Shown here: positions 17,801 to 61,333 of the stretch, piece by piece
Layout of the letters: every line of letters begins with the position of its first letter
Position numbering within the stretch: the stretch's first letter is position 1
NCBI RefSeq assembly: GCF_026151205.1
Contig: NC_087072.1
Coordinates: forward strand, 23,947,603 to 24,011,602
DNA: 64,000 bases
Source of the DNA: Bolinopsis microptera
Lineage: Eukaryota > Ctenophora > Tentaculata > Lobata > Bolinopsidae
Direction of reading: 5' to 3'
Position numbers and translations under genes: made by a program
The notes under the pieces: generated by a model
Database searches by the model: none
Told to the model about the DNA's origin: nothing
The model's input: only the letters and a program-made list of their open reading frames with translations

Positions 17801-20800
17801 GGCTCCTGTACTCCTGTCACACGAGCTGTGGGGAGAACACTTGCAAGCTCTGCACTGTCCACCGTCCTGTAGGATTATTAGTTGTTATACTGTCATCTCC
17901 AACATCTAGTATCTAGTATCTCTATTCTGATTTAAGAAACATGGCAAATGTCAGGCATTATTCCTAACATTATCCCATTAATATAATCCGAATTATATAA
18001 CATGAGGAAAAAGACTTGAAAGTTTTAAGGAAAACAAACCAAATAGAATCCGTCCAAACAGGTTTCACAGCGCACTCCGGCCCGGTTCTCACTGCAACTC
18101 TCAGTACACTTGGGGAAGCTGAACTTCCTTTCTGTACACTGGCCGCACGTCCTCCCTCTGTACCCAACCCTGCACTCGCACTCTCCCGAGTCCTGGTCAC
18201 ATGTCTCAGATACAGAGCCCAGAACCGAGCACTCGCAGGGGGAACACTCTCCCCCACTCAGATACCACCCATCTGAGCAAACATCACACCTTCTCCCAGT
18301 CCAGCCTTCCCTACAAAAACACTGTCCTGCCGTCATGGGCTTGCCCTGGATGTTGCTAAAACTGCTATCTTTCACACAGTCCCCGTCCGGCCAGCCCTCC
18401 ATCCGGACTACACCTCGCATATGGCAATCGCACGCTGGGGGAGAATGTTATGTTAGTGGGGGAGAATGTCTTGTTAGCTGTAGTCCGTACCAAGTCGTGC
18501 TGGTCCCCCGTCCCGTTACTTTGCCGTTAATTGGTATTTACTTAGGTATTATCGGCAATTTATATATAGACTGCTTTCGACCACGGTATAACTTATCGAA
18601 ATTGAGCGGAATGGAATTTGTCTTTTGAGGCAATTAATTAAGTGTTAGTATCGTGGGAGGAATGGATCTGGTGGTCTCTAATTCTAGTCTGACCTATGCA
18701 GGGAAAGGGAGCCCAGGCAGTGAGGTTGGCAGGCCGGTAGAAGCGAGGTTTACAGGTCTCACAGTTGATGCCGGCTGAGTCTCCGGTGCACCCATCACAG
18801 ACACCCCCTCCTCCTCGTTGTGTCTCCGAGATGTAGGACCGGTATTGGGTCTCGATACTCCGCTCGTAGTGACAGGAACTCGCCTTGCCGTAACACAAAC
18901 ACTCTGTCAGGAGATATTTATGAGTAAGTTATAAAGTTGTGTTAAGGGACATGATAATTTAACAAGTCATCCGCGAGCAATGACAACTTAAATAAATTAC
19001 AACACGCATATTACTTATCTTGATAAGTTGTTTCTTTCTAAAATCAGTAAAATAACATTTGCAGTTTGCACTCTGCTGATTCTACGTGAGTATTATGTAT
19101 TACCTGTGCAGGAGTTAGGGTCGGTTGAGTTGGCCGGCTCCCAGGGGTAAGCGTTATACTTGGGACAGCAACTCTCGCAGCTGGATCCGCACGTGTTACC
19201 CTGGCACGTGCAGTGATACCTGGTGGGAAAACAATTTATAATACTATTTATAGTTGTTAACTACTTGTAGTTAGCTTATATTTATAAGCTAACTACAAGT
19301 AGCTATGTTTCTGTAGATGTGAGCGTCTTCTTGGAGATTTTATTACTGTTCATTTTGGATAAGTCAGCTAGACGATTCATAACTAATAATATAAAACGAA
19401 TATCACTACGATGATCAATTAAATAATACCTCACAAACAATCTCAAGATAATATTGATATCAGGATTAAGAGAAGTGACAAATAAAACTCACTCAGAACC
19501 AACAAGGCTGCACTCGCTGCCATGACCGTTACAGATACACCGACCAAAGAGCTTCAAGTTGTTAATACCGTATACCGTCTGAAATTAAATCAGTATAATA
19601 AACGTACTTTAGATATGTCTAAATAAAGAAAAACAGACTAATGGCGAAAAAAGTTTGTTATTTATTTATGTCAATAGGAACGGCCAACGCGGTACACTTG
19701 ATAATTAACAAAATTGCCGCGGAGTGAGGGAATATTTGACATTTGTCAACAGTCGCAGTAAAAATAGTAGCGATGTATAAACTGTCGAGCAGAAAATACA
19801 AGTAGTACTACTACTTGCAAGTTGAAATAGGAAGAGTAGAGAAATGAACCGTGCACAGAAGAGCAGTGTGTAAGTATGATCTAACTCATCTAAACGACTG
19901 ACACGACAAGAGAAAAAACATCAAGCAGAAACATAACACATATAGTTACGACAGCAGAACTTGTAAAAAACTAACAGGTCCCCCGGAAACAGGTAGCAGG
20001 ACAATCTCCAGAGCACGAGTGTTGACCCACTGGGAGACTGAGGTGGTGCCCTGGTCTGCCCCGAAATCCAATCTACTGGGCTCGTCTCCACCGTACTGGA
20101 AACTTGACTTTTCTCTGCAGAGATCCCTGGGTGTTGGAGGCAATATGTTATAAATTTGTATTAGTTTTTTTGAAAATATTGTGCGAACTGCAATAGCGTA
20201 AAGTGCAGTTGGGTTTTAAGTTTTGTCGTGATGGCTATGTGGCCATAATCCTATTCTTATTATTATATTAGTAGAGATTAGAGCCACTGTTTTTCAGATG
20301 AAATTGAATTTCCTTGCGAAAACATGCATCCTTAAATTTCTATGTAATTTGTAAAATGGTTGAGTACATATTTGGTGTGATGTACCTTAAATTTAAATGT
20401 AAATTTCATATTTCTCACCGTATGTTACTGTCGAAATCAACGCCGCAAACTGATAATTTGTTGGAAATTTCAAACATGGTTCTTTTTCCTTTCGAAGACC
20501 TCTGACGCACTTTGAAGTGATATTTATGGTTTTGAGTCATGAGGTTCAATTCCATTTGATGAACTTCAAATTCCTGAAATAAATAGGAATGAAATAATAT
20601 CTATATTAATGGATACTATCTATATTAAATTATCATCAACAATATCAGAATTATGCGGCGGAAAGCGTCTGCCGAATCATAAAAACTGCAGAGTACATAT
20701 TCGTAATGATAAATTCGTGCTTAAAAAAACCCAATATAGCAAAAAACATTACAAAGGAGGTCTATAAAAACAGAAATAAAACCTGGGAGAGAATGATAGT

Positions 20801-34151: not shown

Positions 34152-34861
34152 TCAAGCGTTAGATGTCGGGATGTTTCCCAAATTTTTGGCCGCAAGATTC
34201 CTGCTGTACACGCTGGCATCAAAGTCCCGGTTATATCTGACGCCTGAATTGTCGGGCGTCCGAACATCAGTCCTTGTCGGGGTTCTAGAACCTCCCGAGC
34301 TTGGAGGTGTTGGGGCTGCCTTCCTCGCTTGTGGCCTGGAATCAGTCCTAGGGTTATTTACCCGGTAGTTGACCCTGAGATTGTTGCCGTTTATGTGGGC
34401 CTGATCGTTCTCGCGATGTTGTGTACTGTACCTTGCCGCCCGATGTGCTCCCTGGGCCTGACCATCCGCGTTCGCATATATCAGAGACTCAGGTCGATTA
34501 AATGAGTTTGAGTTCATGGACAGAGTTTTGATGTTGAAGGACGCCCGTCTTGTTCTGTGTTTCTTGAAGCAGCAGTACCCGACCACCAGCACTGCTATTA
34601 AAACAAGCACCACTGGAACCGTTATACCGATTATAAGGGGCAGATTCTTATCGGAGCCACCTTCTGGATCAACAGGGTCAACAGGGTCAACTGGGTCAAC
34701 AACCCCCGCTTTAGTGACTTCAATATTCCTGGTAAACTCCGCAACCCCCATATCGATAACACAGCGGTATGCCCCGGTGGTAGAGACGTCTACGAATGTG
34801 GTGGTGACCGGGTCCGGCCAGCCAGCGCCTGACAGGCTCTGTATCAGCTCCTGGGAGTTTC
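34152..34861 (-). CDS. Ig receptor exon 28: Ig 14 end, stalk, TM, tail, stop
   Basis: Phase 1 in, TGA at 34154-34152. It encodes [14 protein letters not shown] (Ig strand F cysteine), three to four VDP repeats, the helix [20 protein letters not shown], then [10 protein letters not shown] as a basic stop-transfer signal and the tail. The acceptor TATCCCTAG has a good pyrimidine tract and is the one that keeps phase with exon 27. Confidence 0.9.
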
Positions 34862-37800
34862 CTAGGGATAGAACAACCGTTACAGGATGCTATTTGGTGT
34901 ATTGCGTGGGTTAGATAGACAAAGAACGACATATGACTGAGAAAATTCAGGGCATGATTCAGTCTCGACAGTTATATCTATAAACAGAATTCTAAAACCT
35001 GTGAGGTTGATGGAGACACTCTGTACGTGCTTTTACAATTGAACACTAGATATTTCGTAGCAATGTTTACAAATGAATTTGATCACTATTCAACAAAGTT
35101 TCTGGTTATTTTTCTCGAGGACTGAGGTTAACTCACCTTTGTACCAAATAGATTTGACTGGCTCGAAGTGCTTGGAGCCGGAGATGGTGCACGCTATATC
35201 AACCTCCCCGTCGTCACCTATTTCCACTTTTTCAGGACACGTGATATCAATGATATCTAATGTAGCTGTGTGGGTAAATTCCTTTCCTTGAACGGAAAAC
35301 CCACATGCAACTTCTTGGTCGACCGTGGCACTGGTAACCGTCATATCGTACTTGCTGGTTACCGAACTTCCTATTAATATAAAATGTCAGGTCACAAGAT
35401 ATAGTGGATGTTATTTGGGCCTTAAACGAGATTGATAAGGCGCTTTTCTCCACGTCAAACAAACATCTTAGAACACGAAGAAACACCAGAAATAATAGAA
35501 TAAGTATATAAAAACCAGCTACTGTAGCCATCTTGAACTCTTTCTGTCCTCCAATAACCCAATATGAGGACACTTGCTGCCTCATTTCCGTTGATAGATC
35601 TCCGTGCATGGTACATGCTAGCTCGGCCTCCTCCACACCATCACTGAGACTGACTTTGTTCTTTTTGAACTCTGGGAGGTTATTAGAGTTATGATAAGCA
35701 TTCTCAGTCATCAGGTTAAGGTATGCGGTTTAAGGAAACTAAGAATGTTCTCACTGCATATATAATAATATCAGACAATTCTCACGGATTTAAATGCGGT
35801 AATACATCCATTTAATGTAGTTAATGAGTATGTATGTATGTCTTTTGATTGGTTGGCATCGACTGTAAGCCTTCCTTGCGGTGGCTTTCGCAACGCGTCC
35901 CCACTCTGTTACCACCGCCCCTGGTGCAACCCCTTACGGGTTAACGATGAGGAGACAGGGACTTCCAGGGACGGTCATGGCCTGCTACGTGCAACTCGTA
36001 GGAGTATGCAATGTTCCTGTAACGTCACTGTAGACCACTCCTCTGTCGTTGTTTTGAGTGTCCGATCCAAAAACCAAATCCTAGGGTACACGAGACGTGG
36101 AAGCCTGTGAGCGTGTTAGAGTCTGTTAAGTGTTAGAGTCCTAGGGTTACACGAGACGTCGAAGCCTGAGAGCGTGTTAAATCCTAGGGTTACGCGAGAC
36201 ATGGTAGCCTGTGAGCGTGTGGACCGCTCCTCTATCGCTGTTTTGAGTGTCCGATCCAAAACCAAATCATAGGGTACACGAGGCGTGGTAGCCTTTGAAC
36301 GTGTAAAATCCTGGGGTTATACGAGACATGGTAGCCTGTGACCGTGTAGTCCGCTCCTCTATCGTTGTTTTGAGTGTCCGATCCAAAACCAAATCCTAGG
36401 GTACACGAGACGTGGAAGCCTGTGAGCATGTTAGAGTCTGTTAAGTGTTAGAGTCCTAGGGTTACACGAGACGTGGTATAGCCTGTGAGCGTACGCGTAT
36501 TAAATCCTAAGGTTACACGAGACTTGATAGCCCGTGAGCGTGTTAAATCCTGGGGTTACACGAGACGGGGTAGTTTATGAGCGTGTAGACCGCTCCTCTA
36601 TCGTTGTTTTGAGTGTCCAATCCAAAACCAAATCCTAGGATACACTCGAGGCGTGGTAGCCTGTGAACGTGTAAAATCCTGGGGTTACACGAGACATGGT
36701 AGCCTGTAAGCGTGTAGACCGCTCCTCTATCGTTGTTTTGAGTTTCCGATCCAAAACCAAATCCTAGGGTACACGAGACGTGGAAGCCTGTGAACGTGTT
36801 AGAGTCTGTTATAAGTGTTAGAGTCCTGCGGTTACACGAGACGTGGTAGTCTGTGAGCGTGTAGACCGCTCCTCTATCGTTGTTTTGAGTGGCCGATCCA
36901 AAGCCAAATCCTAAGGTACACGAGACGTGGAAGCCTGTGAGCGTGTTAAAGTCTGTTAAGTGAGTCCTAGGGTTACACGAGACGTGCTAGTCTGTGAGCG
37001 TGCTAAATCCTGGGGTTACACGAGACATGGTAGCCTGTGAGCGTGTAGACCGCTCCTCTATCGTTGTTTTCAGTGTCCGATTCAAAAACCAAATCCTGGG
37101 GTTACACGTCATGTGGGATCCTGTGAGTGTGTTAGTTTCCTAGGGTATTTGGCTAAATTTGGCCTAATTTGGACCAAATATGGGCGTGGCTGCCCCGCGG
37201 GCACCGTTTGGCGGTCGCGGTTGGGGACCCCCTCAAAAGTTCGGTCACCGGTCTTAGTTTGTTGGTCAACTGCTATCTCGAAACCAAGTTTCACAAAAAA
37301 ATCAGGGTGAACCCCCCCCCCAAATATATCCACACAATTTGTGACTCAGACTTACCAACAACGTGAATGTTAGATGTCAACGTGTGTACAGCATCAGAAC
37401 TGTCTGTGTATTGGTAAGTAAATATCATGGGTGTAACAACTGAAGCGTAAGTAACTGTTACTTTCTCCTTCTCTACGGTGATGGTTGCTGTCCCGTCTAC
37501 TGTCACGTCTTCTGATACTTCAGATTGCCTGATGGGTAGTAATTAATAATGAGAATTCAAGTATATTTGTTCATCTATTTTATAATTCAACGCTTGTAAC
37601 GTTCGAAGCAGGCGAAATAGGATGATAGTTGGGGCTTTAACACATTTTTATAGGACAACAACTTGCAATCTAGACTGCTACTGCTAGCCAAGACCTACAA
37701 CAACAACAAAAACAGCCAAGACCTACAGGCTACAATACAGTGTTTTTATAACCAAGAAGAACTTACTTAACATAAGAGGTTATGTCCGGTATTTCGGGCT

Positions 37801-40800
37801 CAATCTGTATTTCTATCTGAAGCGACTTTCCTTTCTCTACTATATGTGTTGCAGGGATAGCCAATTCGTATATGTTGATCTGAACGAGTTTCAAGATAAG
37901 GAAAACAAAATTAGAATCATAGAAATACTTCAGGCTGACCCGAACAGTTTTCTGAATGAGCTAACATCAACCAAACTCACAAACCAAAACTCTGCAGTCT
38001 GCACTTACCAGAACTTCCGTACTAAACTCGGTACCCTCCACATTGAACGTACAGCTGTACAGCAGTTCCTTCATCACATTCTTCACCTCCAGCGTGCTAA
38101 CCAGAACTTTGTCTGCGAAATTTCCAGTATTCTCTGTTGTCTCTTGGTCGGGATTATTTGCCTGGGACCAGGATACTGTGGGAGCGGTGCTGGCACCCTC
38201 CAACCGGCACTGGACTGACGTGTCTGAACCCTTGTGCACCATAGAGGGGGTACTGGTGATCTCCACTACCGTTACAGCAACTTTCCTGAAATCAAAAGGT
38301 GTGCTTAGCCTGCTAGCCAGTTAAACATGAAAAATGAAGGGAAAACAATTATCTTGATAAAAGAAGAATCGTTAGAACAAGTGGAATACGATCCAGTAAA
38401 GAGAAAATAAATCTAAAATCAATATTTGAACAATCTATTATTATTTTAATTTAATATCAGTTAAAAAATCCAACCTGCTTCCAGTGGTTCCGTCCAACAC
38501 GAATTTACAAGTGAAGATAGCGGAAGTGGATGGTTCAATCTCTAGAGTAGTGGTCTGCTCTCCGTCCTTGAATGTTCCTGCCACCACTGTATATTCACTT
38601 GAAGAGTCGGTCGCCTTGTACTCCTTGTCATTTTCGTCTAAAAAAAACAAGCGTAAGAATCATTTTGGAAACCCAAATCATCAAAACAATAAAAACAAAA
38701 GCACAAATTTACTTCAACTAGAAGAAAAATCCGCTCAAAATGGTCACCTGTCCATAAGACAGAGATTGGCTGCGAGACAGCACCCGATAGATCACACTTG
38801 ATTGTAGCAGGCCCGGATCCCTTCAGCACCACAGCACCCACAGCACTCACTGTCACCGAGGAAACAGTTGAAGACTTTCCAGATCTAGAATCTTCAATGC
38901 CACACCGGTACTCTCCAAGATTCTCATTCTGAACACTCTCCAAAGTAAGGGTACTAGTCACAACGAAGTCGTCATAAGTCTCGGTGTGCCCGGGAACTGG
39001 ATCAGTAGCCCCATCCTTGTACCAGTTCAGATCTACTTTAGTGTAGTTTTTAACAGAGCAGGACAGCTCCACCTCACTTCCTGCTGCTACCACCAAGTAC
39101 TCCTCACTCAGTAGCTCTATATCTGAAGTGATTGGTCACGTGTGAGACCACGAGGGTTGAAGTAGATAATAATACGGTGCTGCTAAGAAAGTGCTCGGAC
39201 TAAACATCAGAACAGTGTGATTCGCTTAGTGCTTTAGTGGAGCCAGTGTGATTAGTGGAAATGTTTCAAATCCACAATTAGTGTAACTAACAAGTGATCG
39301 TGTCAGCAACAATCAGTAGTCTGCACTCACTAGTCTGTAATTAGCCAATCAACTCTTAAGTCCAGTACTATTAAAGTATTAAGAGAAACAGAAATAGAAA
39401 GACTAAGTAATCAAGTGTTTAGGTAGGGCACACTGAAATTCCAGGGCGAAAATTGAGCGTTCGCTTAAAATTTATTTGTCAGTATTCTAGAAAGTTTGGA
39501 TTTTCATCAACCCGAGCTTAATTCCTAAAAGTGTACGAAAAAGTACATTAAATCTAGAATATTTGTCTGTATGTGATCTGTTTCTGTATGTGATTTGCAT
39601 TAGATAGCAAATCACATACACACACAGAAACATATATTTACTTCAGAGACAAATCACATATGACTTCGATGGTTCTAGTTGAAGGAAAATATAGGGGGTG
39701 TAATGATAAATCTCTCTCTGATAAAAAATATCTATAGAGATTTTCAGAAAATGGAGGATTACGTACGTGACACGTGTTAAACCACAATCCCAGACCATTA
39801 CATCATTGGCAATGAAAGCAAACTTATTGATACAATTAGGACTTAGGAGATACGGCAGAAAAGTACAATCGCCTTCATTAGTAGGCCAGATTAAAAAAAC
39901 TGGCATAAGCTGATATTCTTTAGTTATTTGGGAATATCATAATATGTTTGTCTTCCTTTTTACATATGATGCTTTGATCGTCACATACTATTAATAAACG
40001 CGTTGGTTGGGTTAAATAAGATACTATGATGGCGGACAACTTACTGCGAATGTAAGCGTACATAGTCTCTTCAAGTTCCTTGTTGCCCGGCACATCGTAT
40101 AGACAACCAAAGGTACCTTCATTAGCTGCTACCACCTGGGCAGCGAGATTAAATATTAACTAGAGATAAACTTGTACCAGTTTGGAACAACTCTGGAACA
40201 ACCAGGGTTCATACATTTCTACTTCGGGTTGAGAATTTAACCCTTCTTATCTTATGTAGATAGTAATACACGACTCAATCAGATTATGAAGATTATTTTC
40301 ACAAATTAACTATGTACCGAATTTCCGTATTATTGAGATAAATGAGGAACTACAAATTATAGCATTTTTGTCTTATCTATTCGGCAACAAGATATCCAAG
40401 ACTCCAAGTTATATTTATTAACTTTAAAAGAATTAGGAAGAACTTTAAAGATATTAACGTTACCTCATTGATGGAAAGGTAGCTTGTAAGTGGGTCTGAT
40501 CCAGCTGTAACATTGAAGGTAGGTGCTTTCACTGTCTCGCTGTTTTTCACCCATTTCACCCCGGATACGGTCAGATCCTTGCTCTTCAGAACGCATGTAA
40601 GGGTCACTGAGAGCGCGTCGTAGAACTTCGGTTCAGCAGGCAATGTCTCAATATCTGAGGGTATTATCAACTATTAGCTATTAGTATCAACTATATTATC
40701 AACTATTAGTATCTACGATATCAATTTATCTGTTGGCAAGCTTGTCATAAGAATAAAATAATATCTAGTGACATGTTCTTGCAGCAATAACTGTAAAGTA

Positions 40801-43800
40801 ATTGAGAGAGCATCGGATGTCAGAGGACCGTATTTAAGTTGATATGGATAACATTTTAAACTAGAAATCAATAGAGTTAAGAATGTTCCCCCATGGCTTA
40901 AGCGTCGGCCACTCTCCACTAATCACCACTATAAAGTATAACGGCCACATTTTAATCACAGAAAGAGAGAGTTAGAGAGAGTTAGAGAGAGAGAGAGTTA
41001 GAGTTAAGGAGAGCTTGTAGGATGGTTGGACCGACAAGCAACAGCTTAGACTTCCCTTCAGGGGACCATTACTAATTAAGTTATTATTAAAACACAATAT
41101 TGTAATAAAACATCACCTTCCACTCATCTGATTAGCAAGTCAAGCACAATCAGGCTACTCCCCACAGGACAGCCACGTGACTGTAGAGCACTCAGCTCAC
41201 ACCGTTATCTCACTCTACTCAACCGCCAGATTGAGTGAGACAATCGTTATTGCAGCTCTATTTTTGGCGATGACGGACAGGTTGTGACAGTGTCCGGGCA
41301 ACAGATGACGTGTATAGAAACGGGCGTGATTTCAGCACTTTAGTTTGCATCTTGTGGTTATATAACTGTGCTCTTATTTCACACCTCAGTTAACTTTGTT
41401 GCACAAGGGTTCTGACAGCTTTCTAACTTTTGGCCTGACAATCATTTAGTTGTAGGCTACTGCCATTTATAGTTGCAGCCGCTGAGGATAACGGTTCCTT
41501 GCTTTTCGGTTCTTTGTTATCTTTCTTAATAATCGTCATATCCAGTATGTAATGAGTCCAAGTTACTGCGGACATAGTTCACTATGTGTTTAATGTGTTT
41601 GGGTGCCCATCATATTTTACAGATGGGGATGATATTTTGAACGATTCTATTTTATATTCATCTATTGCTGTACTCTGTAAAATTTGAAAAGTATTTAATA
41701 AAAAAGAACAAATGAAATGACTTCTTACGCAGAATAGAAAGGGTTTGCAGCCACCACCCCGACCTTCTTAAACAAAAGATGCCCTCAGCTATGACATTTA
41801 AACAGCTATGACATTTAAACATGTTAAAGAGGCTTTTATTTAAATTCAATCTCGGGTGTTGCATAATCGTGCCCCACCTTGGATTGTCCGAAACGAACAA
41901 CGAAAACTCTTACTATAAAAGTTACAAACGTTGTCAAAACTAGCAAACATTTGCTGGAATCAACATTGACGTTGAGCATTGCCTTTTGTGATCAGTTTTT
42001 AGTAAAGTCTACCAATTGATAATCAAGTTGTCGCTAATATCACGATTGATTGTTGATTTGGACGACAAAGCCGTTGCGTACACACTATAACACATTAAAA
42101 TTTGGCATAAACTTATACAATTCTCTTACTTTGGATGGACCTTGTTTCGTCAGATCACTTCTCGTATGGACACAATAAGGGATGCTAAGCGTCTAAACAA
42201 ATTCTAAATTAGAAGTGCTCATATGTCTCTAATTTTCCAGATTCGTTAAAAATTGATGATGGAGAATATTAAATATACGACGTTTAATCATATTGTAATA
42301 TCCGGATATATTATAATAGGATATATTATATATTCATATTTAAGTTTCTGGCAGATTAATCAATATAACGAAACCCTTTAATAACGTATATATGAAAATA
42401 TTTATATACGGTACATGAAACTATTTTAATTTAGCATATTCTGATATTCCATCAAAGAGCATTAAATAAAATATTTCTACGAATTTTAGAAAAATCAGGT
42501 CAGGTATCTCAAGAACGTTAACTGAATCTGAAATCTCTGGCATCTTAACCTTCGACCTTAACCATTCATCGCACTAGGATGGATAATGTATATTTGAGTT
42601 TTGACAAAATTAAATCCAACCAAACAAGTTTTACTTTTACAAATTGTGTTTGTGTGAGCAAAACTTGTTTAGGAGAAAATTAATGTAATATTTGTTTGCA
42701 TTCCGACCTGACAGTGACACTATAATGTATGATATAGCTATTATGAGTTTATCCTATAAAGCTATAAAGCTATTCGTATTCATCGGAATTATAGGTATTC
42801 TAGGAATAAACAGACTTTCCGGTTAGGTGATAGACTTAGTTTACTCACCATATCCACTTTAAGACTACAAGCTTTCAAGTTACTGCACGGTAGATTTTGT
42901 CGACCTCCATAGTCTATCTTTCCTCATTTTGTAAGCAATTGCATTGATTCGACCACCCGAATATTGTAAAATGTTTTATTGATTTCATCGATTTTTGAAG
43001 TTCATACAATTTGGTAGTTGAATTTCTAGCTCAAGAGGTTCTAGTTCAAGCTATTCTAGCTGCAGTGGCGCAAGATAGACAATCCAGGTTATAGCAGAAT
43101 AAGTTTGTCATCGGTCCCACATTTCCCATTATTCAGTGCATATCCAGCTCCTTTTAATCCCTATCACGAAATATTACAAGAAAGCAACAAATTTCAAGAA
43201 AACGGGTACTCTGATCCTTTCTAGTCATGATTCTCCAGCTTGAATGGTAATTTAAAGATGCACTCTTTTCAAAGCTGAAAGTGACCCTATACCCTATATC
43301 CCGTTATACAGAGTTATATGTCCTGACTAAGAGGTATGTTGGATATGTGCTAACATATTTCATTAGTAAAGCTCACAATAAAAAGATAAAAACTCTCAAT
43401 GAACACTGTACCCAGCTAAGTAGGTGCTGTATAAGAGTTTATACCTATAAATATAATAATGTTGTCAGGTTTGTGGGAGTTTGTGGTCCTAGAATTTGAT
43501 TTTATGCCCCTTGCCCTCCATTATCCTGACTCACAGCATAACTAATCCAATATTCACGCTAGGTTGCTTTTAGGGACTGCATTAATATGTAGGTGGGGTA
43601 GAAGGTTTCAACATATTATGTAAGCACATGTTTGTCAGCATTCAGATATCCCACTATATTCATGTCCGCATTTTCCAGACCCCCTGTTAATTTACGAATT
43701 GAAGCTTGCAAATGACGTCTATGAACATTATGGACCTAATATAAGTCATGTTGAAAAATAAATCCAACCGTACTAATACAACAGGTGTCTAAATTGAGGT

Positions 43801-46800
43801 GTAAATTTCTTATTCCATGCCAATGCAGATTGTATCTTCTGAATTATACCGGCTTGTGCCACGTGCGTCTTACTCTATACATGAGCTTATTTTTGTATTT
43901 TGTACCGTTACAAGAATCAACACAGTCTAAATTAATCGAATTGTCTCACAGCAAAGTGAAAATTTAACTTATTGAATTTTGACTGAATTATGAGTAGTTC
44001 TACCATGACAGCGTTCACACTTGATTAGTTCTTCTAATGTGCACTTTGAGCAGGACTGTTTATCCAGTTTGAAGACAATTTTATTGTAATTAGCGGATGT
44101 GCGTACGTAAACGCAAAAAACTCGACATTACTAGAGACATTTTGCTTTCCAACTACTTTTGAGTTTCGATATACTTGACACACTGTATGTGATGGAAAGT
44201 TATGCGATGCTTATATATGGCGAGACTATTGTCTCAAGATAACTATTCTAGGTAAGAGACTAGTATATTAGTATAACGACTAGTATAGCAGTATAGACAG
44301 TATATTCCAGACAATGTTTATTTAATATTTAAGGAAGATATATAATTAAACTTATGATATAGTCTCCTTCTGTATAGGGCACTGCACACTGAAATGTCGA
44401 CTATCCCAAAATACGTTTCAGGACTTTGATTTTCTTACAGCGGAAATAATTTTACATTTTTTATAAGCTTTGATATAAAACCAATACGTCCCATGATATT
44501 GTGCGATGTTGATTGTTGAAGTAACCTGCACACTTTTTTAGCTTTAAGTCTCGAGAAAAGGTCCCGTATTCGTGATATGAAGAAAAGTGTTGTCGATAAA
44601 GGAGCAGATAGTTTCATACTACAAGCCGGAATCGCTCTCAACAAACGATCTCTAGCATCCACTGGTTCATTCCTCTCCCCATGTAAGTGTTAATACCTGA
44701 TTTCCCAGCGAATTTGATTGCTTTCTTACTGTAGAATTTTTGACTTGAATTAAATCCGTCAGTATTGAAATTTCCTCAAAGATGGTTGGTCGCCAAATAA
44801 CGAACACTTAACTTCAGAAGAAGTTCATATAGAAGAAGTGCACACTAAGCCGACTAAAGATGATATCAGGAGAAGATATCAACACCACTGCAGAGGCTCT
44901 CGGGGACACAGTATCCTTGATCTCCTCTGAAGACACCACCTCAATTCCAGCGACTCTGGAGTCAAATTCTACTCAGTACAGTGATCTTGAGGAGATCTCT
45001 ATCTCGGATACACTGCTGGTACCACTCCCTCCAACTCCTTACTACAAGGTGGAAGACAAGTTCCTGTTCGACGACCTAGTAGATGATATATCAGAGGAAA
45101 AAGCTTGCGAGGAGAAGAGACCCAGGGACAGATACAACCGCTACTTCGTAGCATTTATGATCCTTGGAGCTGGGTTTCACCTGCCCTTCAACAGCTTTGT
45201 GGCAGCAGTTGACTACTTTATGCTCAGCTTCAACCGGAACAACATGGCATTTATAGTCGCCTCCACAAACTCCTACACAGTCTGTTTGGCGGTGATCATC
45301 AACGTGGTTCTGGTTAACAAGGTCTCCACTCATAAGAGGATCTCCTTCGGTTACCTGGCCTTCATGATATCCCTGCTCTCCATGGCCTTGCTGGTGGCGC
45401 TCACAATCCTGGGTGTGGTGGACAGTAGCACGGGGTTTCTGGTGACCATTGGAGCTACCATCTTCACAGGGATAGGGTGCGGAGTGCAAGAGGCCAGTTA
45501 CTATGGTTACGCTGGCATGTTGCCCAGCAAGTACACCAGGGCCCTCATGTTAGGGGAGAGCTTCGCTGGGCTTGTGGTCTCATTCAACAGGATCGTGACA
45601 AAGTTGACGATTGAGGACCCCCTTACCAATACTGTTATCTTCTTCTCCCTGTCAATAGTCGGTGAAATAGTGTGCATTATCCTTCACAGATACATCAAGA
45701 AAAGCGAGTTTGTGAAGTATTACAAAGCGAAGGAGGAGGCTGCGACTGCTGAAGATAAACACCAGTACGATACCGTATCTTACTCTCCTCTTCCCTCAAA
45801 GACAAAGAAGTCTGCCTGGGACTCGATCAAGGAGGGTCTGAAGCTACGGCTCAAAGTAAGCAAGAAAATCTGGAAGCTGATGTTTGGGATCTTGAACGTG
45901 TACTTCGTGACCAACCTACTCTACCCTGGTGTGGCATCCGTTATAGGATCTTCGTGGTCGAACGGCTGGCTCCCGGTCATCCTCATCACAGCTTTCAACC
46001 TATCAGACTTGGTAGGAACCCTGGTAACTGGGCTACCCTGGAAGATGCCGGATAATATCCTCCTGTTGATGGGATGTCTGCGCTGGGCGCTCATACCCAT
46101 TCTATTGATGTCCGTCCTACCGCTTAATGGTCCCTTCATCTCTGGAGAAGGATGTCCCTTGATCGTGATCCTGATCCTGGGGTTCACCACCGGTTACATG
46201 GGCTCTACTCCCATGTGCGCTGCTGCTGATAAAGTTAGCCTAGAAGAACGAGAAATGGCTGGTAATCTCATGACCATGATGATGTTGCTTGGCTTAACTC
46301 TGGGCTCTTCATCTGCTCTTATCATCAACAAAGTCATGGGAATCGCCGGACAATCAGAGATTTAGGTCGATAGCCTTACAAAGACGGGCATTACAGTGAG
46401 TATGTGATTCGTTATTACAGTGATTCTGAGATTAGGTACGGGTTTATTGATACAAAAGGTAACGACTTGTTATTTAAGTAACATTATAAGGTACTGAAAA
46501 TCGAATCATATTATGTGTGTTAAATGTATGTATGTGCCCTAAACGAGAAATTTATCGGGTGAAACCTACTTACATATTCAATATTCCGAAATATAAGCGT
46601 ATTCGAATTTGATACCCTTCGTTTCATTTATCCCAAGAAACAAAATACTACTAAAGAGTAAAGATTTCCGAAAAATCCTTCGCCTAGAAAGAAATAAACA
46701 TTTAGGGATTAAATTAAGACAGTCGAGTGTGATATTCTAGCCTGTAATTTAATTTGGGTGGCTATAACCACGGTCTACGGAGAGGAATATAAGAGTATCA

Positions 46801-59300: not shown

Positions 59301-61333
59301 ACAGGTGTCGATAACATCACGATAGAAGATGCAGAACAACAAGCAACAGACAAGGTTCGCTGGAGATGTCTAATACACCGGAGAAAGGAGTTACCGCATG
59401 GTGCAGGCCACTCCAACGACTAGGAGGAGACCATAAGTAGTATGACCATGTGGAACAATGAGTCAGTGTTCTAACGAGCTCATTCGTATGAATTATATCC
59501 ACAAAAGTTAATAACACAACTGCAGTATATTGTTAATAACACAACACAATTGCGGCACAGTACATTGAGGGTAACTATTGCGACAATGAGGGTGGGGCTG
59601 CAACATGTAGGCCGGAGGTTGATAATTGAGCTGTGTCAGCGGTTTGGGGGTGCAGTGGGGTTGAGCACCAAATAAAACTGCACCTTATACAAATCCTGCT
59701 AGTTCTTAAGAAGTATTTTGGGCTTTGAAGTTTGAACCATCGAAGTAAACTGTGTCAAGGTGGCCGCTAAACCACGATGTTAATGGAACAGCAGGGTAAG
59801 TTTCCATAGCATCAATTGATATACCTACTAGTAACTAGTAACTCTTATACTCTTTCTACATCTGTCGCTAATTTGAACATAGTGACTGAAACAGTTAGAA
59901 TATAAACGAACCTCGACACGATGACGGCATCTGACCAGTTACACATGGTACATTAGCAACCGAACTGCTCCCTAACTGATACCTGTAACAGATAAAATGG
60001 GTTACTGGAACACAGAAACCGGGTCTGGGAGGAAGTTAGAGCAGTGAACATGGCAGGGTACTAAAGCTAGGAAAAGGTTACGTTATATACCGAGTAAACC
60101 AACGAGCATAACCATTTGTCAATATGTCCGGTTTTTGCCATATTGTCAAGCTGATAACACGGTATACACGGTATACACGGTATACACGGTATACACGGTA
60201 TACACGGTATACACGGTATATACGGTATACACGGTATACACGGTATACACGGTATACACGGTATATACGGTATACACGGTATACACGGTATACACGGTAT
60301 ACACGGTATACACTGTATACACGGTAGTATACACGGTATACACACACGCGTAACTCTATAACTTACTGGGAGTCACAGAAGACTTCGAAAGCGGTTGACT
60401 CGCTGATCTCCTCGTCGACGGAGTTAGCGTTCCCTATCTGTCCGTTTTGTATTGTGGGAACAGTACATTTGGGTCCAGTATCCTCATCCGCCGTTTCAGT
60501 GTCATCAGTGTTATCTTGACCTGTAAACCCGGAGTAATAGATTGAAATAGGGTCCGAGTTATCAGCTATTCTTATCAGTTTCTATAACTGAGCATTCTGT
60601 TTATGCAACCATTTCCACTAGAGACGTTTTTAAATAGAAGCATACCTTATAGGTTATACATAGTGAGTAGTGAGTACTTACATTTTACTGTATTCTGCCT
60701 CAGAAGTATGAATATGGTAAACCTGAAAATAGATACTTTTAGTATGAAGCGTCCGGAGTAGTATATAGCGGAATAGAATCCTATATGCATCGTTATTTAT
60801 GCACGGTCTACATGAAAATGTATCATCTTAAGATATAATATGGAGTTTGAGTATGACTTAGTAAATAGGTCCTCCGGTTCCCGCAACCGTAGGTGTATCT
60901 TATACTCTGTCCTCAGTATATATCATAGCTGAATACTGCATACCCTACCGCATACAGCATACAGAATATAATATGAATTTATGAATATTTTTAAAAACGT
61001 CCACACATCGTTTACCCGTTCGGCATTTTAACTACAGTTACGTGTGTAAGTGACTAAAACGCACTTGAGATCGAATTACGAAGAATACGGAATTTCAGAA
61101 AAACTTTCATAAACGCCTGGGAAATGATTACAATCCGCTATAGACTTTTATCATATTATAATTCGATAACAAACATGTAATTTACGATCCCAAAGCAAAT
61201 TCATCACAGCAAATTAATATCCTAACTGGATAAGACAAATTCAGGAGAAATCACAATCCTTACACAGCATGATAAACAGAACTTGCTAAAGTTAAACTAC
61301 TTACGCTAGAAGTAAAGAAGTGTGAAGTCGCAT
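34152..61333 (-). CDS. sushi and 14-Ig-domain type I membrane receptor (28 exons)
   Basis: A large cell-surface protein, probably an adhesion or recognition receptor (inference from domains). Its 28 exons, each listed separately, sum to 4,857 nt: 1,618 codons plus stop, with all 27 junctions in phase. Order: signal peptide 1-20; sushi domain about 42-97 with four cysteines; 14 Ig-like domains from about 99 to 1435; an acidic VDP-repeat stalk; transmembrane helix about 1456-1481; cytoplasmic tail of about 137 residues. Most Ig domains keep the two cysteines and core tryptophan; domain 12 lacks the cysteines. The tail has LIYANAD, whose YxN fits a GRB2-type SH2 site, four other tyrosines and a proline-rich APTPP, but no clear ITIM or ITAM. 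Two genes are nested in intron 18. No named orthologue is recognised. Confidence 0.88.
35137..35370 (-). CDS. Ig receptor exon 27: Ig 13 second half, Ig 14 first half
   Basis: Phase 1 in and out. It encodes [16 protein letters not shown], then [20 protein letters not shown] and SIWYK. Donor G/GTGAGT is strong. Confidence 0.9.
35516..35671 (-). CDS. Ig receptor exon 26: Ig 13 first half
   Basis: Phase 1 in and out. It encodes [20 protein letters not shown] then SYWVIGG. The acceptor CTCCCAG follows from phase. The donor G/GTTTTT is weak and was chosen only because it is the site that keeps the frame; the exact 3' edge could differ. Confidence 0.75.
36040..37130. repeat. complex tandem repeat of about 1.1 kb
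   Basis: Irregular units built from CCGCTCCTCTATCGTTGTTT, GAGTGTCCGATCCAAAACCA and ACACGAGACGTGG, repeated many times with variants, inside the intron between Ig receptor exons 25 and 26. No coding capacity. Confidence 0.9.
37356..37528 (-). CDS. Ig receptor exon 25: Ig 12 second half
   Basis: Phase 2 in, phase 1 out. It encodes [20 protein letters not shown] and [13 protein letters not shown]. The position of the strand F cysteine is taken by another residue. Donor G/GTAAGT. Confidence 0.8.
37767..37879 (-). CDS. Ig receptor exon 24: Ig 12 first half
   Basis: Phase 0 in, phase 2 out. It encodes [20 protein letters not shown], an Ig strand A-B pattern with no cysteine at the strand B position. 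Donor AA/GTAAGT. Confidence 0.8.
38009..38285 (-). CDS. Ig receptor exon 23: complete Ig 11
   Basis: Phase 2 in, phase 0 out. It encodes [22 protein letters not shown] and [11 protein letters not shown], so cysteine, tryptophan and cysteine are all in one exon. Donor CTG/GTAAGT. Confidence 0.9.
38475..38637 (-). CDS. Ig receptor exon 22: Ig 10 second half
   Basis: Phase 1 in, phase 2 out. It encodes [20 protein letters not shown]. Long T-rich acceptor tract. Confidence 0.9.
38748..39122 (-). CDS. Ig receptor exon 21: Ig 9 and first half of Ig 10
   Basis: The longest internal exon (375 nt), phase 1 in and out. Ig 9 is complete: [31 protein letters not shown]. Then [11 protein letters not shown] and VLWT begin Ig 10. 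No intron separates the two domains, unlike most of the gene. Confidence 0.92.
39581..39630. repeat. short inverted repeat
   Basis: gtatgtgatttgc and its complement lie about 8 bases apart, with flanking TTTCTG/CAGAAA also complementary at an offset. Located in the intron between exons 20 and 21. Confidence 0.7.
40045..40135 (-). CDS. Ig receptor exon 20: Ig 8 second half
   Basis: Phase 0 in, phase 1 out. It encodes [18 protein letters not shown]. Donor A/GTAAGT. Confidence 0.9.
40464..40654 (-). CDS. Ig receptor exon 19: Ig 8 first half
   Basis: Phase 1 in, phase 0 out. It encodes [23 protein letters not shown] and LTSYLSINE. This is the first exon after the 7.4-kb intron with the nested genes, and its phase matches exon 18 exactly. 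Confidence 0.9.
40961..41010. repeat. GAGAGTTA purine-rich microsatellite
   Basis: GAGAGA and GTTAGAGA units over about 50 bases in intron 18 of the Ig receptor gene. Confidence 0.85.
41556..41704. mobile_element. dispersed repeat, copy B (about 149 bp)
   Basis: Same sequence and orientation as 15042-15193 apart from a few substitutions and a shortened G run. It lies 26 kb away in the intron of a different gene, so this is an interspersed element and not a local duplication. Confidence 0.8.
44860..46365 (+). CDS. equilibrative nucleoside transporter family protein (SLC29-like), intronless
   Basis: Carries nucleosides across a membrane down their gradient, by family. 501 residues, slightly longer than typical animal ENTs (about 450-475) because of an acidic N-terminal tail of about 93 residues. 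TM1 carries [18 protein letters not shown], the family GxG..LP.N.F pattern. The TM4-5 signature [19 protein letters not shown] is followed by [14 protein letters not shown] long hydrophilic loop (about 279-335) separates the first six helices from the last five. FNLSDLVGT at about 379-387 resembles the FN..D..GR motif but lacks the arginine, and [10 protein letters not shown] replaces the usual SNGY, so substrate range may differ. The gene has no introns and lies on the plus strand inside an intron of the minus-strand Ig receptor gene, which suggests origin by retroposition. Confidence 0.9.
   Translation: MISGEDINTTAEALGDTVSLISSEDTTSIPATLESNSTQYSDLEEISISDTLLVPLPPTPYYKVEDKFLFDDLVDDISEEKACEEKRPRDRYNRYFVAFMILGAGFHLPFNSFVAAVDYFMLSFNRNNMAFIVASTNSYTVCLAVIINVVLVNKVSTHKRISFGYLAFMISLLSMALLVALTILGVVDSSTGFLVTIGATIFTGIGCGVQEASYYGYAGMLPSKYTRALMLGESFAGLVVSFNRIVTKLTIEDPLTNTVIFFSLSIVGEIVCIILHRYIKKSEFVKYYKAKEEAATAEDKHQYDTVSYSPLPSKTKKSAWDSIKEGLKLRLKVSKKIWKLMFGILNVYFVTNLLYPGVASVIGSSWSNGWLPVILITAFNLSDLVGTLVTGLPWKMPDNILLLMGCLRWALIPILLMSVLPLNGPFISGEGCPLIVILILGFTTGYMGSTPMCAAADKVSLEEREMAGNLMTMMMLLGLTLGSSSALIINKVMGIAGQSEI
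46693..46698 (+). terminator. candidate polyadenylation signal AATAAA
   Basis: The AATAAA hexamer lies 328 bases after the transporter stop codon and before the actin-like gene. It is a plausible 3' end, not proven. Confidence 0.4.
46786..46794 (+). promoter_or_regulatory. candidate TATA-like box
   Basis: AATATAAG lies about 100 bases before the actin-like start codon. It is the only TATA-like site at a sensible distance, but such sites are common in AT-rich DNA. Confidence 0.25.
46894..48021 (+). CDS. divergent actin-like protein, intronless
   Basis: 375 residues, exactly the length of conventional actin and alignable end to end. Conserved parts: first phosphate loop [97 protein letters not shown] and GPEIVH at the end. 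Differences: DSGDGVTH is DSGEGVTH, the methylated histidine of PIEHGI is tyrosine (PIQYGI), the D-loop is rewritten, and the C-terminal KCF is replaced by SLK. These suggest an actin-related protein with altered nucleotide handling and polymer contacts, perhaps tissue-restricted like other intronless actin-like genes (inference). It is nested in intron 18 of the Ig receptor gene on the opposite strand, 528 bases after the transporter gene. Its 3' end lies only 79 bases from exon 18 of the host gene. Confidence 0.92.
   Translation: MNSVVLDCGTGIIKSGFAGDDTPTSVFPSVVGHPKHSHTPMVAAETSREYFVGSEAQWKRGMLDLRCPIQYGIVTDWDDMEKIWDHVFNKELKVSPNEHPVLLTEPPLNPKQNKEITAQIMFENFSCPGIHFGMQSVLALYSSGGTTGMVVDSGEGVTHLVPIYQGFSIPQAVTRLEVAGGELTDYLTKLLNENTGYEFVSSSERDIARDIKEKLCFVAQDPARELRDNTAGNTLKKKYTLPDGQVLSVNKERFQCAEALFDPFLLGRQTPGLHTACAESIMKCGIDLRSDLYRNITLVGGTTKLPGLDLRLEKEVNSLSPKLARVKVIAPHNRQHSVWIGGSVLASMSTFGTTSAWISKQTYEENGPEIVHSLK
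48101..48267 (-). CDS. Ig receptor exon 18: Ig 7 second half
   Basis: Phase 2 in, phase 1 out. It encodes [17 protein letters not shown]. Donor G/GTCAGT. It lies 79 bases from the stop codon of the actin-like gene on the other strand. Confidence 0.9.
48404..48548 (-). CDS. Ig receptor exon 17: Ig 7 first half
   Basis: Phase 1 in, phase 2 out. It encodes [18 protein letters not shown], then [12 protein letters not shown]. Donor AA/GTAAAA is weak but phase-consistent. Confidence 0.88.
48809..48952 (-). CDS. Ig receptor exon 16: Ig 6 second half
   Basis: Phase 1 in and out. It encodes [16 protein letters not shown] and KFSWKG. The strong acceptor has a long T-rich tract. Confidence 0.9.
49112..49285 (-). 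CDS. Ig receptor exon 15: Ig 6 first half
   Basis: Phase 1 in and out. It encodes [20 protein letters not shown] then LEDGTPIG. The plus-strand and longer minus-strand open frames here are read-through of intron sequence. Confidence 0.9.
49447..49719 (-). CDS. Ig receptor exon 14: complete Ig 5
   Basis: Phase 1 in and out, 273 nt: a symmetrical exon holding a whole Ig domain ([32 protein letters not shown]). It has two extra cysteines near the canonical pair, which could form an additional disulfide. Confidence 0.92.
50067..50229 (-). CDS. Ig receptor exon 13: Ig 4 second half
   Basis: Phase 0 in, phase 1 out. It encodes [17 protein letters not shown]. Donor G/GTGAGT. Confidence 0.9.
50482..50624 (-). 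CDS. Ig receptor exon 12: Ig 4 first half
   Basis: Phase 1 in, phase 0 out. It encodes [15 protein letters not shown] and [11 protein letters not shown]. Acceptor TGTCTAG. Confidence 0.88.
50651..50800. repeat. 74-bp tandem duplication
   Basis: Two essentially identical copies (50651-50724 and 50727-50800) separated by two bases, in the intron between exons 11 and 12. Confidence 0.9.
50933..51125 (-). CDS. Ig receptor exon 11: Ig 3 second half
   Basis: Phase 0 in, phase 1 out. It encodes [35 protein letters not shown]. Donor G/GTAAGG. Confidence 0.9.
51361..51532 (-). CDS. Ig receptor exon 10: Ig 2 end, Ig 3 first half
   Basis: Phase 2 in, phase 0 out. It encodes [16 protein letters not shown], then [18 protein letters not shown]. 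The acceptor GTTTCAG is directly preceded by an 11-bp tandem array. Confidence 0.9.
51542..51668. repeat. 11-bp minisatellite (TGTAGTTATAG), about 11 copies
   Basis: Nearly perfect array in the intron just before the 3' splice site of Ig receptor exon 10; on the transcribed strand each unit reads CTATAACTACA. Confidence 0.9.
51688..51803. repeat. 9-bp minisatellite (CCGTGTAAC), about 12 copies
   Basis: A second array about 20 bases beyond the 11-bp array, in the same intron. Confidence 0.9.
51959..52041 (-). CDS. Ig receptor exon 9: Ig 2 middle
   Basis: Phase 0 in, phase 2 out, 83 nt. It encodes [20 protein letters not shown]. Donor AG/GTACTT. Confidence 0.88.
52243..52370 (-). CDS. Ig receptor exon 8: Ig 2 first part
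   Basis: Phase 1 in, phase 0 out, 128 nt. It encodes [19 protein letters not shown] and [11 protein letters not shown]. Its acceptor (TATCCAG/GTACC) lies in the first unit of the 32-bp minisatellite. The first four codons formed across the junction (S T T M) come partly from repeat sequence. Confidence 0.88.
52361..52875. repeat. 32-bp minisatellite, about 15 copies, overlapping a splice acceptor
   Basis: The plus-strand unit contains TTGTGGTACCTGCAGATATT and TACATTACTTCA. On the transcribed strand each copy reads ...AAATATCTGCAG/GTACCACAATG, that is, a copy of the exon 8 acceptor. A period of 32 and the lack of stops keep all three plus frames open, producing three spurious long open frames. 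Confidence 0.95.
53235..53317 (-). CDS. Ig receptor exon 7: Ig 1 end
   Basis: Phase 2 in, phase 1 out, 83 nt. It encodes [20 protein letters not shown], holding the strand F cysteine (about residue 172). Donor A/GTGAGT. Confidence 0.9.
53353..53392. repeat. (TG)n microsatellite
   Basis: About 20 TG dinucleotides in the intron just upstream of Ig receptor exon 7. Confidence 0.95.
54024..54086. repeat. 31-bp tandem duplication
   Basis: Two copies of GTTATACCTAGTAACCTAGT plus about 11 more bases, differing at a few positions, in the intron between exons 6 and 7. Confidence 0.85.
54159..54286 (-). CDS. Ig receptor exon 6: Ig 1 middle
   Basis: Phase 0 in, phase 2 out, 128 nt. It encodes [13 protein letters not shown] (core tryptophan about residue 132) and [10 protein letters not shown]. 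Confidence 0.9.
54418..54500 (-). CDS. Ig receptor exon 5: Ig 1 start
   Basis: Phase 1 in, phase 0 out, 83 nt. It encodes [19 protein letters not shown] with the strand B cysteine at about residue 119. Acceptor TTATTTCAG. Confidence 0.9.
56325..56371. repeat. perfect 18-bp inverted repeat (hairpin)
   Basis: Arms tataggttgacctcccac and its complement surround an 11-base loop, inside the 3.6-kb element. Confidence 0.9.
56790..58219. mobile_element. nested inverted-repeat unit with poly-C/poly-G edges
   Basis: It starts AATTGACCCCC followed by a C run and CGACAATTGACC, and ends with G-rich sequence and GGGGGTCAATT. Second-level inverted motifs GGCGACATCTGTCCGACAG (left, 56870-56960) and CGGACAGATGTCGCTGTCGG (right, 57855-57900) mirror each other. 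The 0.8-kb core shows no protein domain. The right part holds the telomere-type array. Exact edges are uncertain. Confidence 0.65.
57909..58111. repeat. interstitial telomere-type repeats (CCCTAA/CCCTGA)
   Basis: About 33 hexamers, mostly alternating CCCTAA and CCCTGA, reading as TTAGGG and TCAGGG on the other strand. Far from any visible chromosome end and enclosed in an inverted-repeat unit. The plus-strand frame reading Pro-Asn/Asp-Pro is an artefact. Confidence 0.95.
58480..58700. repeat. 85-bp tandem repeat, about 2.5 copies
   Basis: Units start GATAATTTTATA and contain CCTGCCAAGTTAATGGAAAA, close to the right end of the 3.6-kb element. Confidence 0.85.
59912..59982 (-). CDS. Ig receptor exon 4: sushi domain second half
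   Basis: Phase 2 in, phase 1 out, 71 nt. It encodes [18 protein letters not shown] then PSSC, the third and fourth cysteines of a CCP module (Y.L.GS....C...G.....P.C). Strong acceptor TGTTACAG. Confidence 0.88.
60158..60348. repeat. 9-bp minisatellite (GGTATACAC), about 20 copies
   Basis: Nearly perfect array, alternating purine-pyrimidine over long stretches, ending about 19 bases from the donor of Ig receptor exon 3. It keeps several frames open on both strands, none of them real. Confidence 0.95.
60367..60520 (-). CDS. Ig receptor exon 3: acidic linker and sushi first half
   Basis: Phase 1 in, phase 2 out. An acidic run ([13 protein letters not shown]) is followed by [13 protein letters not shown], the C..P.I.NG start of a sushi/CCP domain, and then VFCDS. 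Donor CA/GTAAGT. Confidence 0.88.
60682..60722 (-). CDS. Ig receptor exon 2: end of signal peptide (41 nt)
   Basis: Phase 2 in, phase 1 out. It encodes [13 protein letters not shown], completing the hydrophobic core of the signal peptide. Clean sites: TTTTCAG and T/GTAAGT. Confidence 0.8.
61305..61333 (-). CDS. Ig receptor exon 1: start codon
   Basis: The ATG at 61,333-61,331 encodes MRLHTSLLL and then GC/GTAAGT in phase 2. Joined to exon 2 it gives [17 protein letters not shown], a convincing signal peptide. The exon may extend upstream as untranslated sequence to an acceptor (TTACAG) that would put its edge at 61,478. An upstream ATG in that stretch is closed after two further codons by a stop. 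Confidence 0.75.

What the first reader, a model, noticed from the sequence alone, without database searches (positions are those of the whole stretch)
34152..61333. Large unrecognised receptor: one sushi domain, 14 Ig domains, one transmembrane helix
Twenty-eight exons rebuilt by hand give 1,618 codons with every splice phase agreeing, from signal peptide to stop. I recall no named family with a single N-terminal sushi module followed by 14 Ig domains and a short tyrosine-bearing tail. A recognition or adhesion role is inference.
Basis: partly seen in the sequence, partly recalled or inferred. Interest (0 to 1): 0.75.

Follow-up and report, generated by a model that had tools for sequence, protein, structure and literature searches.

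The report
Comb-jelly receptor with fourteen Ig-sized domains
A large single-pass cell-surface protein of a comb jelly, one sushi-like module and a rod of fourteen immunoglobulin-sized domains, was correctly read from raw DNA; it looks like a recognition or adhesion receptor, only distant relatives were found in its own genome, and it shares with some of them an unusual shortage of sugar-attachment sites.

Summary
The genome is inferred to be a ctenophore, by assembly size and largest chromosome Bolinopsis microptera. The protein has a signal peptide (by eye), a four-cysteine sushi-like module (Pfam 15.2 bits, under the 20.7 cut-off), fourteen Ig-sized units, one membrane helix and a 140-residue tail with five tyrosines. 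Thirteen units have some sequence support as Ig domains; unit 12, without cysteine or tryptophan, has none. Two separate genes score only slightly lower. Best reading: an IgSF adhesion or recognition receptor. No close copy turned up in its genome (29 of 329 candidates scored), but a distant multi-Ig relative with sushi domains did. Unexpected: 3 N-glycosylation sequons where 11.8 are expected, reversed motif normal; 5 of 21 tested sets show this, the two best matches among them. Ligand, expression, polymorphism and orthologues elsewhere were not testable. New variant of a known kind.

The parts
61305..61333 (-). exon 1, start codon and first part of signal peptide
60682..60722 (-). exon 2, rest of signal peptide
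60367..60520 (-). exon 3, acidic linker and first half of sushi-like module
59912..59982 (-). exon 4, second half of sushi-like module
   Evidence: phase 2 in, phase 1 out; replaces a decoy at 57453-57547 that lies in a dispersed repeat
54418..54500 (-). exon 5, Ig1 part 1
54159..54286 (-). exon 6, Ig1 part 2
53235..53317 (-). exon 7, Ig1 part 3
52243..52370 (-). exon 8, Ig2 part 1; its acceptor lies in a variant copy at the edge of a 32-base minisatellite
51959..52041 (-). exon 9, Ig2 part 2
51361..51532 (-). exon 10, end of Ig2 and start of Ig3
50933..51125 (-). exon 11, Ig3 part 2
50482..50624 (-). exon 12, Ig4 part 1
50067..50229 (-). exon 13, Ig4 part 2
49447..49719 (-). exon 14, whole of Ig5 (two extra cysteines)
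49112..49285 (-). exon 15, Ig6 part 1
48809..48952 (-). exon 16, Ig6 part 2
48404..48548 (-). exon 17, Ig7 part 1
48101..48267 (-). exon 18, Ig7 part 2
40655..48100 (-). intron 18, 7,446 bases, holds two plus-strand genes
40464..40654 (-). exon 19, Ig8 part 1
40045..40135 (-). exon 20, Ig8 part 2
38748..39122 (-). exon 21, whole of Ig9 and start of Ig10
38475..38637 (-). exon 22, most of the rest of Ig10
38009..38285 (-). exon 23, end of Ig10 and whole of Ig11
37767..37879 (-). exon 24, unit 12 part 1 (no cysteine)
37356..37528 (-). exon 25, unit 12 part 2
35516..35671 (-). exon 26, Ig13 part 1; weak donor gttttt
35137..35370 (-). exon 27, end of Ig13 and start of Ig14
34152..34861 (-). exon 28, end of Ig14, VDP-repeat linker, membrane helix (about 34575-34643), 140-residue tail, stop

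Best explanation
The gene encodes a type I, single-pass cell-surface receptor of the immunoglobulin superfamily in a ctenophore. A sushi-like module sits at the outer tip of a rod of fourteen Ig-sized domains. The rod binds a partner on another cell or in the matrix, and a long tail with five tyrosines, one in a Tyr-x-Asn context, couples binding to the cell interior. Shown by sequence: the gene and its phases, the domain order, the helix by hydropathy, the shortage of N-glycan sites. Seen by eye only: the signal peptide. Inferred: surface display, the adhesion or recognition role, tail phosphorylation.
For: Complete frame of 1,618 residues, 28 exons, GT-AG throughout, phases agreeing, far above 60 shuffles. 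Ig domains by Pfam and by profile comparison. Hydropathy peak 3.25 over the one strong helix. Nine domain starts at phase-1 introns, the usual layout of shuffled extracellular modules (the rule is recalled). The nearest solved sequences are mostly adhesion and guidance receptors: Dscam 5.6e-11, Robo1 1e-5, TYRO3, LAR-type phosphatases; titin, which is intracellular, ranks second at 1.8e-6. Sequons are depleted only in the N-x-S/T sense (3 against 11.8; reversed motif 13 against 11.7), which I take as a sign of passage through the secretory pathway (inference).
Against: No transcript was available. Sushi is below the Pfam cut-off. Unit 12 has no sequence support as an Ig, and hhalign probabilities for units 2 and 7 are low (4.5 and 24%). 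Exon 26 has a weak donor, and four other in-phase donors keep the frame open. The tail, which should lie in the cytosol, also has no sequon where 2.8 are expected (37 of 1000 shuffles as low), so the depletion may not be confined to the ectodomain. Nothing here tests binding, ligand, cell type or phosphorylation. The two AlphaFold models, of single exons with three-row alignments, are poor (mean pLDDT 62.5 and 61.5); the fold search with the first gave no match at E 0.001 or better.
Confidence: 0.6

Rival explanations
1. The span holds two genes: a secreted or truncated one (signal peptide, sushi, Ig1-7) and a second receptor (Ig8-14, helix, tail), parted by the 7.4 kb interval with two plus-strand genes in it.
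For: The split costs little in coding score: 220.2 or 214.0 for two parts against 226.7 joined (the joined run used the decoy exon 4). The interval is the longest in the gene and holds two other genes.
Against: No single-exon signal peptide with a phase-1 donor was found on the minus strand of the interval, though that scan could not find a two-exon signal peptide such as the real one. The best start found for the second part is five residues, MVKVE. Phase 1 matches on both sides of the interval.
Confidence: 0.12
2. An immune or self/non-self receptor with polymorphic alleles, in the manner of the Alr receptors of Hydractinia or fester of Botryllus. This overlaps with the best explanation and differs in the ligand and in polymorphism.
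For: Multi-Ig ectodomain, sushi-like module, tyrosine tail. Ctenophores have many undescribed Ig genes.
Against: No ITIM or ITAM in the tail. No close copy found (29 of 329 candidates scored), and the nearest other I-set row is about 330 kb from the gene, although that search misses most of this gene's own domains. Polymorphism could not be tested.
Confidence: 0.2
3. A structural, load-bearing or secretory-granule protein rather than a signalling receptor: a bare Ig rod that packs side by side.
For: Sequon depletion shared with other long arrays; one relative has a much longer array.
Against: A 140-residue tail with five tyrosines is more than an anchor needs (judgement).
Confidence: 0.15

Closest known systems
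Dscam family
   Same: Long rod of I-set-like Ig domains, single helix; best hit among solved sequences.
   Different: Dscam has ten Ig and six FN3 domains and no sushi (recall); no FN3 hit is listed here.
Siglec-1 (sialoadhesin) type multi-Ig receptors
   Same: Many Ig domains, one helix, no FN3 (recall).
   Different: Siglec-1 begins with a sialic-acid-binding V-set domain and is vertebrate (recall); here a sushi-like module is first.
Large Ig-sushi gene at C1:3.06-3.10 Mb of the same genome
   Same: Long Ig array, sushi domains, a membrane helix, sequon depletion; 24% identity over a 284-column alignment.
   Different: Far larger; sushi domains lie after the Ig array, with an ephrin-receptor-like module; different tail. 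My model of it is a draft that did not join the exon with the helix.
Hikaru genki and GABA-B1a
   Same: Known proteins where sushi modules occur with an Ig domain, or at a receptor tip (recall).
   Different: One Ig with several sushi, secreted; or a class C GPCR. Neither has an Ig rod (recall).
Allorecognition receptors Alr (Hydractinia) and fester (Botryllus)
   Same: Invertebrate single-pass receptors with Ig-like or sushi ectodomains (recall).
   Different: A few domains only (recall); here fourteen, and no ITIM or ITAM.

Membership tests
Immunoglobulin superfamily | Ig-fold domains with B and F strand cysteines and C strand tryptophan | tested here: met
   Pattern in 13 of 14 units; a Pfam cut-off passed by 5 of 14, E below 0.01 in 9 of 14
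Sushi/CCP domain | Pfam PF00084 at its cut-off | tested here: not met
   15.2 bits against 20.7; four cysteines and an NG motif fit, so it is called sushi-like
Dscam | FN3 domains next to the membrane (recall) | tested here: not met
   No FN3 among hits up to E 1 in the joined protein (the filters drop most hits above 0.1)
Hemicentin | N-terminal VWA and C-terminal EGF/fibulin modules (recall) | tested here: not met
   No such Pfam hit; a helix and tail instead
ITIM or ITAM immune receptors | ITIM or ITAM in the tail | tested here: not met
   No match of either pattern in the 140-residue tail
LAR-type receptor phosphatases and receptor kinases | Cytoplasmic catalytic domain | tested here: not met
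   140-residue tail without a catalytic Pfam hit
Allorecognition receptors | High allelic polymorphism linked to fusion outcome | not testable with these tools
   One assembly only, no reads

The most novel reading that the evidence does not exclude
Ctenophores evolved a class of long, nearly N-glycan-free Ig-rod receptors, of which this is a compact member; selection removes sequons because the bare Ig faces must dock along their length. This would be an independent cell-recognition or adhesion system in an early-branching animal lineage.
Probability: 0.25. Interest if true: 0.75.

Novelty: new variant of a known kind. Interest (0 to 1): 0.42.

Why it matters
[quoted passage not shown] The genome paper that I could read counts their Ig genes and describes other families. 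A defined 1,618-residue receptor with exon coordinates gives a concrete handle, and the sequon depletion, present in some Ig-bearing genes of this genome and absent in others, marks a class that can be tested directly for glycosylation, location and binding.

Tried and rejected
A first model used 57547-57453 as exon 4.

Organism: genome size in the literature led to a nematode paper and nothing useful; no COX1 match. Used instead: innexins, no match to the Antennapedia homeodomain above 55% identity in 19, matches only on C1 to C13, and C1 of 26,206,493 bases, which agree with Table 1 of PMC11797021 for Bolinopsis microptera: 265 Mb, 13 chromosomes, largest 26.2 Mb (passage seen). The scaffold count differs (346 there, 232 contigs here).

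Structure: two AlphaFold jobs on single exons were poor; the one fold search listed mainly antibody, T-cell-receptor and MHC chains, none at E 0.001 or better, and is not used. Reading L009 by eye I took one stretch for a sushi module; Pfam gave no Sushi hit up to E 1, so it is not claimed. Unit 12 against the relative: 24.3 bits; best of 50 shuffles 25.0, best of a second 20 shuffles 21.9; not counted as support. In the same call units 7, 10 and 11 stood clearly above their shuffles, units 3, 4, 5 and 6 fell below the best of 20 shuffles, and the rest were close to it. A possible shared domain after the sushi modules of the relative and L009 was not borne out (hhalign probability 0.5%). Sushi matches in the genome (150 of 817 candidates scored) do not include the window's own module, so I drew no conclusion from them.

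Full report
Check of the observation. The gene lies on the minus strand from 61333 to 34152. A simple exon finder that I wrote, trained only on the nucleoside-transporter and actin-like genes nested in the span, scores the minus strand 118.7 (28 exons, 1,326 codons), against a maximum of 15.3 in 60 shuffles that keep dinucleotides; the plus strand of the same span gives 48.2. A run retrained on its own exons listed 29 exons, 22 of them identical with exons of the final model. One exon of my first model was wrong: the stretch at 57547-57453 occurs in 8 other places of the genome. The replacement at 59982-59912 has matching phases and supplies the third and fourth cysteines of the sushi pattern.

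Domains. Signal peptide by eye; sushi-like module at residues 40-98 with cysteines 42, 72, 88, 97; fourteen units of 86 to 106 residues from 99 to 1433; a VDP-repeat linker; a helix at 1456-1478; a tail at 1479-1618. Pfam puts the sushi module below its cut-off. Five of 14 units pass an Ig cut-off, nine of 14 have E below 0.01. Units 2, 5, 7 and 13 beat all 20 shuffles each against a profile of those nine, with scores 18.0, 25.9, 23.4 and 28.6 (probabilities 4.5, 47, 24, 65%); unit 12 scores 8.0 and fails; leaving out each of the nine in turn gave 18.6 to 51.9. So the count of fourteen is right by size and position, thirteen by sequence, and of these unit 2 is the weakest.

One gene or two. 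The 7,446-base intron 18 carries an uninterrupted nucleoside-transporter gene (Pfam 6.7e-49) and an actin-like gene (6.5e-120) on the other strand. Scoring the two halves apart gives 220.2 or 214.0 against 226.7 joined, a small margin, but the second half then starts with MVKVE. A scan for a single-exon signal peptide found none; it would miss one split over two exons. I keep one gene, at about 0.88.

Organism. No COX1 was found. Eighteen innexin matches, no Antennapedia-like homeodomain above 55% identity in 19 matches, and matches confined to contigs C1 to C13 point to a ctenophore. Assembly size 264,652,675 and C1 of 26,206,493 bases match the Bolinopsis microptera column of Table 1 in PMC11797021 (265 Mb, 13 chromosomes, largest 26.2 Mb; passage seen). 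The scaffold number in that table is 346; G000 has 232 contigs. The species is inferred.

Relatives. The whole-protein search of its own genome, in which 29 of 329 first-look candidates were scored, found besides its own exons and the repeat only weak matches at one place, the best with 27% identity and E 7.4e-9 at C1:3082017-3082598. A shorter query, 41 of 41 candidates scored, found two more weak ones. The region around the first encodes a very large gene. After removal of doubtful 5' exons my draft has 4,753 residues, mostly Ig-type units that I did not count one by one, then sushi domains (one at E 4.7e-10, over cut-off, three others below it) and an ephrin-receptor-like module (3.2e-10); a last open frame with a membrane helix follows, which the draft did not join. 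Pfam was run on two Ig-bearing pieces of it only, with Ig hits in both. Window protein against twelve fetched proteins: best bits 63.2 for that gene and 58.9 for L009 (C8:9.17 Mb), 45.1 or less for the rest; long targets are favoured in such a list. Taken alone, only units 7, 10 and 11 of the window match the relative clearly better than shuffles do. The genome has 145 I-set matches, with 150 of 593 candidates scored; the window gene supplies one row, the large relative none, so such a search undercounts this kind of gene.

An unexpected feature. The ectodomain has 3 N-x-S/T sequons; shuffles give 11.8, and the reversed motif S/T-x-N, which has the same composition but no glycosylation, is at 13 against 11.7 (1 of 2000 shuffles as low, 0 of 1000). 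I counted 21 sets from this genome: the window ectodomain, the C1 relative's Ig part, L018 joined with L008, L009, L002, L010 to L017, and L019 to L026. Five of 21 had no shuffle of 1000 at or below the observed count: window 3 against 11.8, C1 relative 4 against 50.9, L009 1 against 14.8, L025 0 against 9.8, and the C9:5.21 Mb protein, mostly not Ig, 5 against 24.2. In these five the reversed motif was at 13, 48, 19, 10 and 23 against 11.7, 50.9, 14.3, 10.0 and 24.2. Weaker depletion: L016, L010, L024 (13, 18 and 26 of 1000 as low). More than expected: L002, L011, L014 (14, 13 and 16 against 9.7, 7.3 and 8.8). The transporter and actin-like proteins are at expectation.

Limits of that result. 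Two further counts are not among the 21: the window tail has 0 against 2.8 (37 of 1000 as low; reversed 5 against 2.8), a weak sign against a purely lumenal cause, and the sushi part of the relative has 2 against 5.7 with the reversed motif equally low. In L002 the reversed motif itself is low (3 against 9.9), which shows that repeats can upset this control. The loci followed the I-set list and the two searches and were not random; L019 to L026 and the relative are partial drafts from my exon finder; L021 and L022 share near-identical exons; L021, L022 and L026 gave under 200 residues each. The depletion is therefore a property of some extracellular proteins here, not of the genome as a whole.

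How it most likely works. A long rod held out from the membrane, with a sushi-like tip, suits binding in trans to another cell or to matrix. The tail has five tyrosines, one as YAN, and one PTPP; it has no ITIM, ITAM or Yxx-hydrophobic motif. YxN as a Grb2-type site is recalled knowledge. The lack of N-glycans would leave Ig faces bare for docking. Beyond the motifs this paragraph is inference.

Literature. Six searches joined ctenophore or Mnemiopsis with immunoglobulin, sushi, allorecognition, Dscam or Ig-domain terms, and one joined sushi and immunoglobulin domains with allorecognition and found no paper; all were seen as listings. Read further: PMC11797021 (passages, and section 6 part 1 of 2), PMC10232365, PMC13231562, PMC13245172 and PMC10879605 (passages only). 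PMC11797021 states that hundreds of genes carry domains such as I-set and V-set and then studies other domains; it reports C-type lectin proteins of Mnemiopsis combined with Ig, EGF and sushi domains. None of the passages that I saw describes this receptor. PMC10232365 says that the Bolinopsis genome was annotated with RNA-seq and Iso-Seq, so the gene is probably present there as an unnamed model; I could not look.

Verdict. It is an IgSF receptor, a known kind of molecule, with an unusual domain order in a lineage where such genes are little described. The sequon depletion is the most surprising part and was not in the finding.

Noticed in passing
window 44860-46365 (+): Uninterrupted equilibrative nucleoside transporter gene nested in intron 18 of the receptor, opposite strand (Pfam 6.7e-49).
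   Followed up: partly
window 46894-48021 (+): Uninterrupted divergent actin-like gene in the same intron, at most 56% identical to the other full-length matches in the genome, several of which are also uninterrupted.
   Followed up: partly
window 34152-61333; loci L001, L003-L007, L008 with L018, L009, L025: Strong shortage of N-glycosylation sequons in 5 of 21 tested sets, reversed motif near expectation in these five.
   Followed up: partly
G000 C1:3061000-3101900 (L001, L003, L004, L005, L007): Very large multi-exon gene with a long Ig array, sushi and ephrin-receptor-like modules and a membrane helix.
   Followed up: partly
G000 C9:5200400-5216300 (L018, L008): Open frame of 3,268 residues with repeated cysteine-rich modules and, by eye, Ig units at its end.
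   Followed up: no
window 52351-52874: 32-base minisatellite, 15 copies at 52399-52874; a variant copy at 52351-52431 covers the acceptor and first codons of exon 8.
   Followed up: no
window 57913-58111: Telomere-like ACCCTAACCCTG array inside intron 4.
   Followed up: no
window 57453-57547: Part of a dispersed repeat found in 8 other places on C1, C2, C4 and C5, with usable splice signals; a trap for gene finders, my own included.
   Followed up: partly
window about 12950-18930 (-): Laminin gene fragments: laminin EGF and laminin B domains, some of the pieces below cut-off.
   Followed up: no
window 50651-50800: Perfect 76-base tandem duplication in intron 11.
   Followed up: no
G000 C1:4254005 and C1:4378223; C7:6754013 and C7:6935049: Innexin genes in pairs with identical scores, recent duplications or assembly duplicates.
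   Followed up: no
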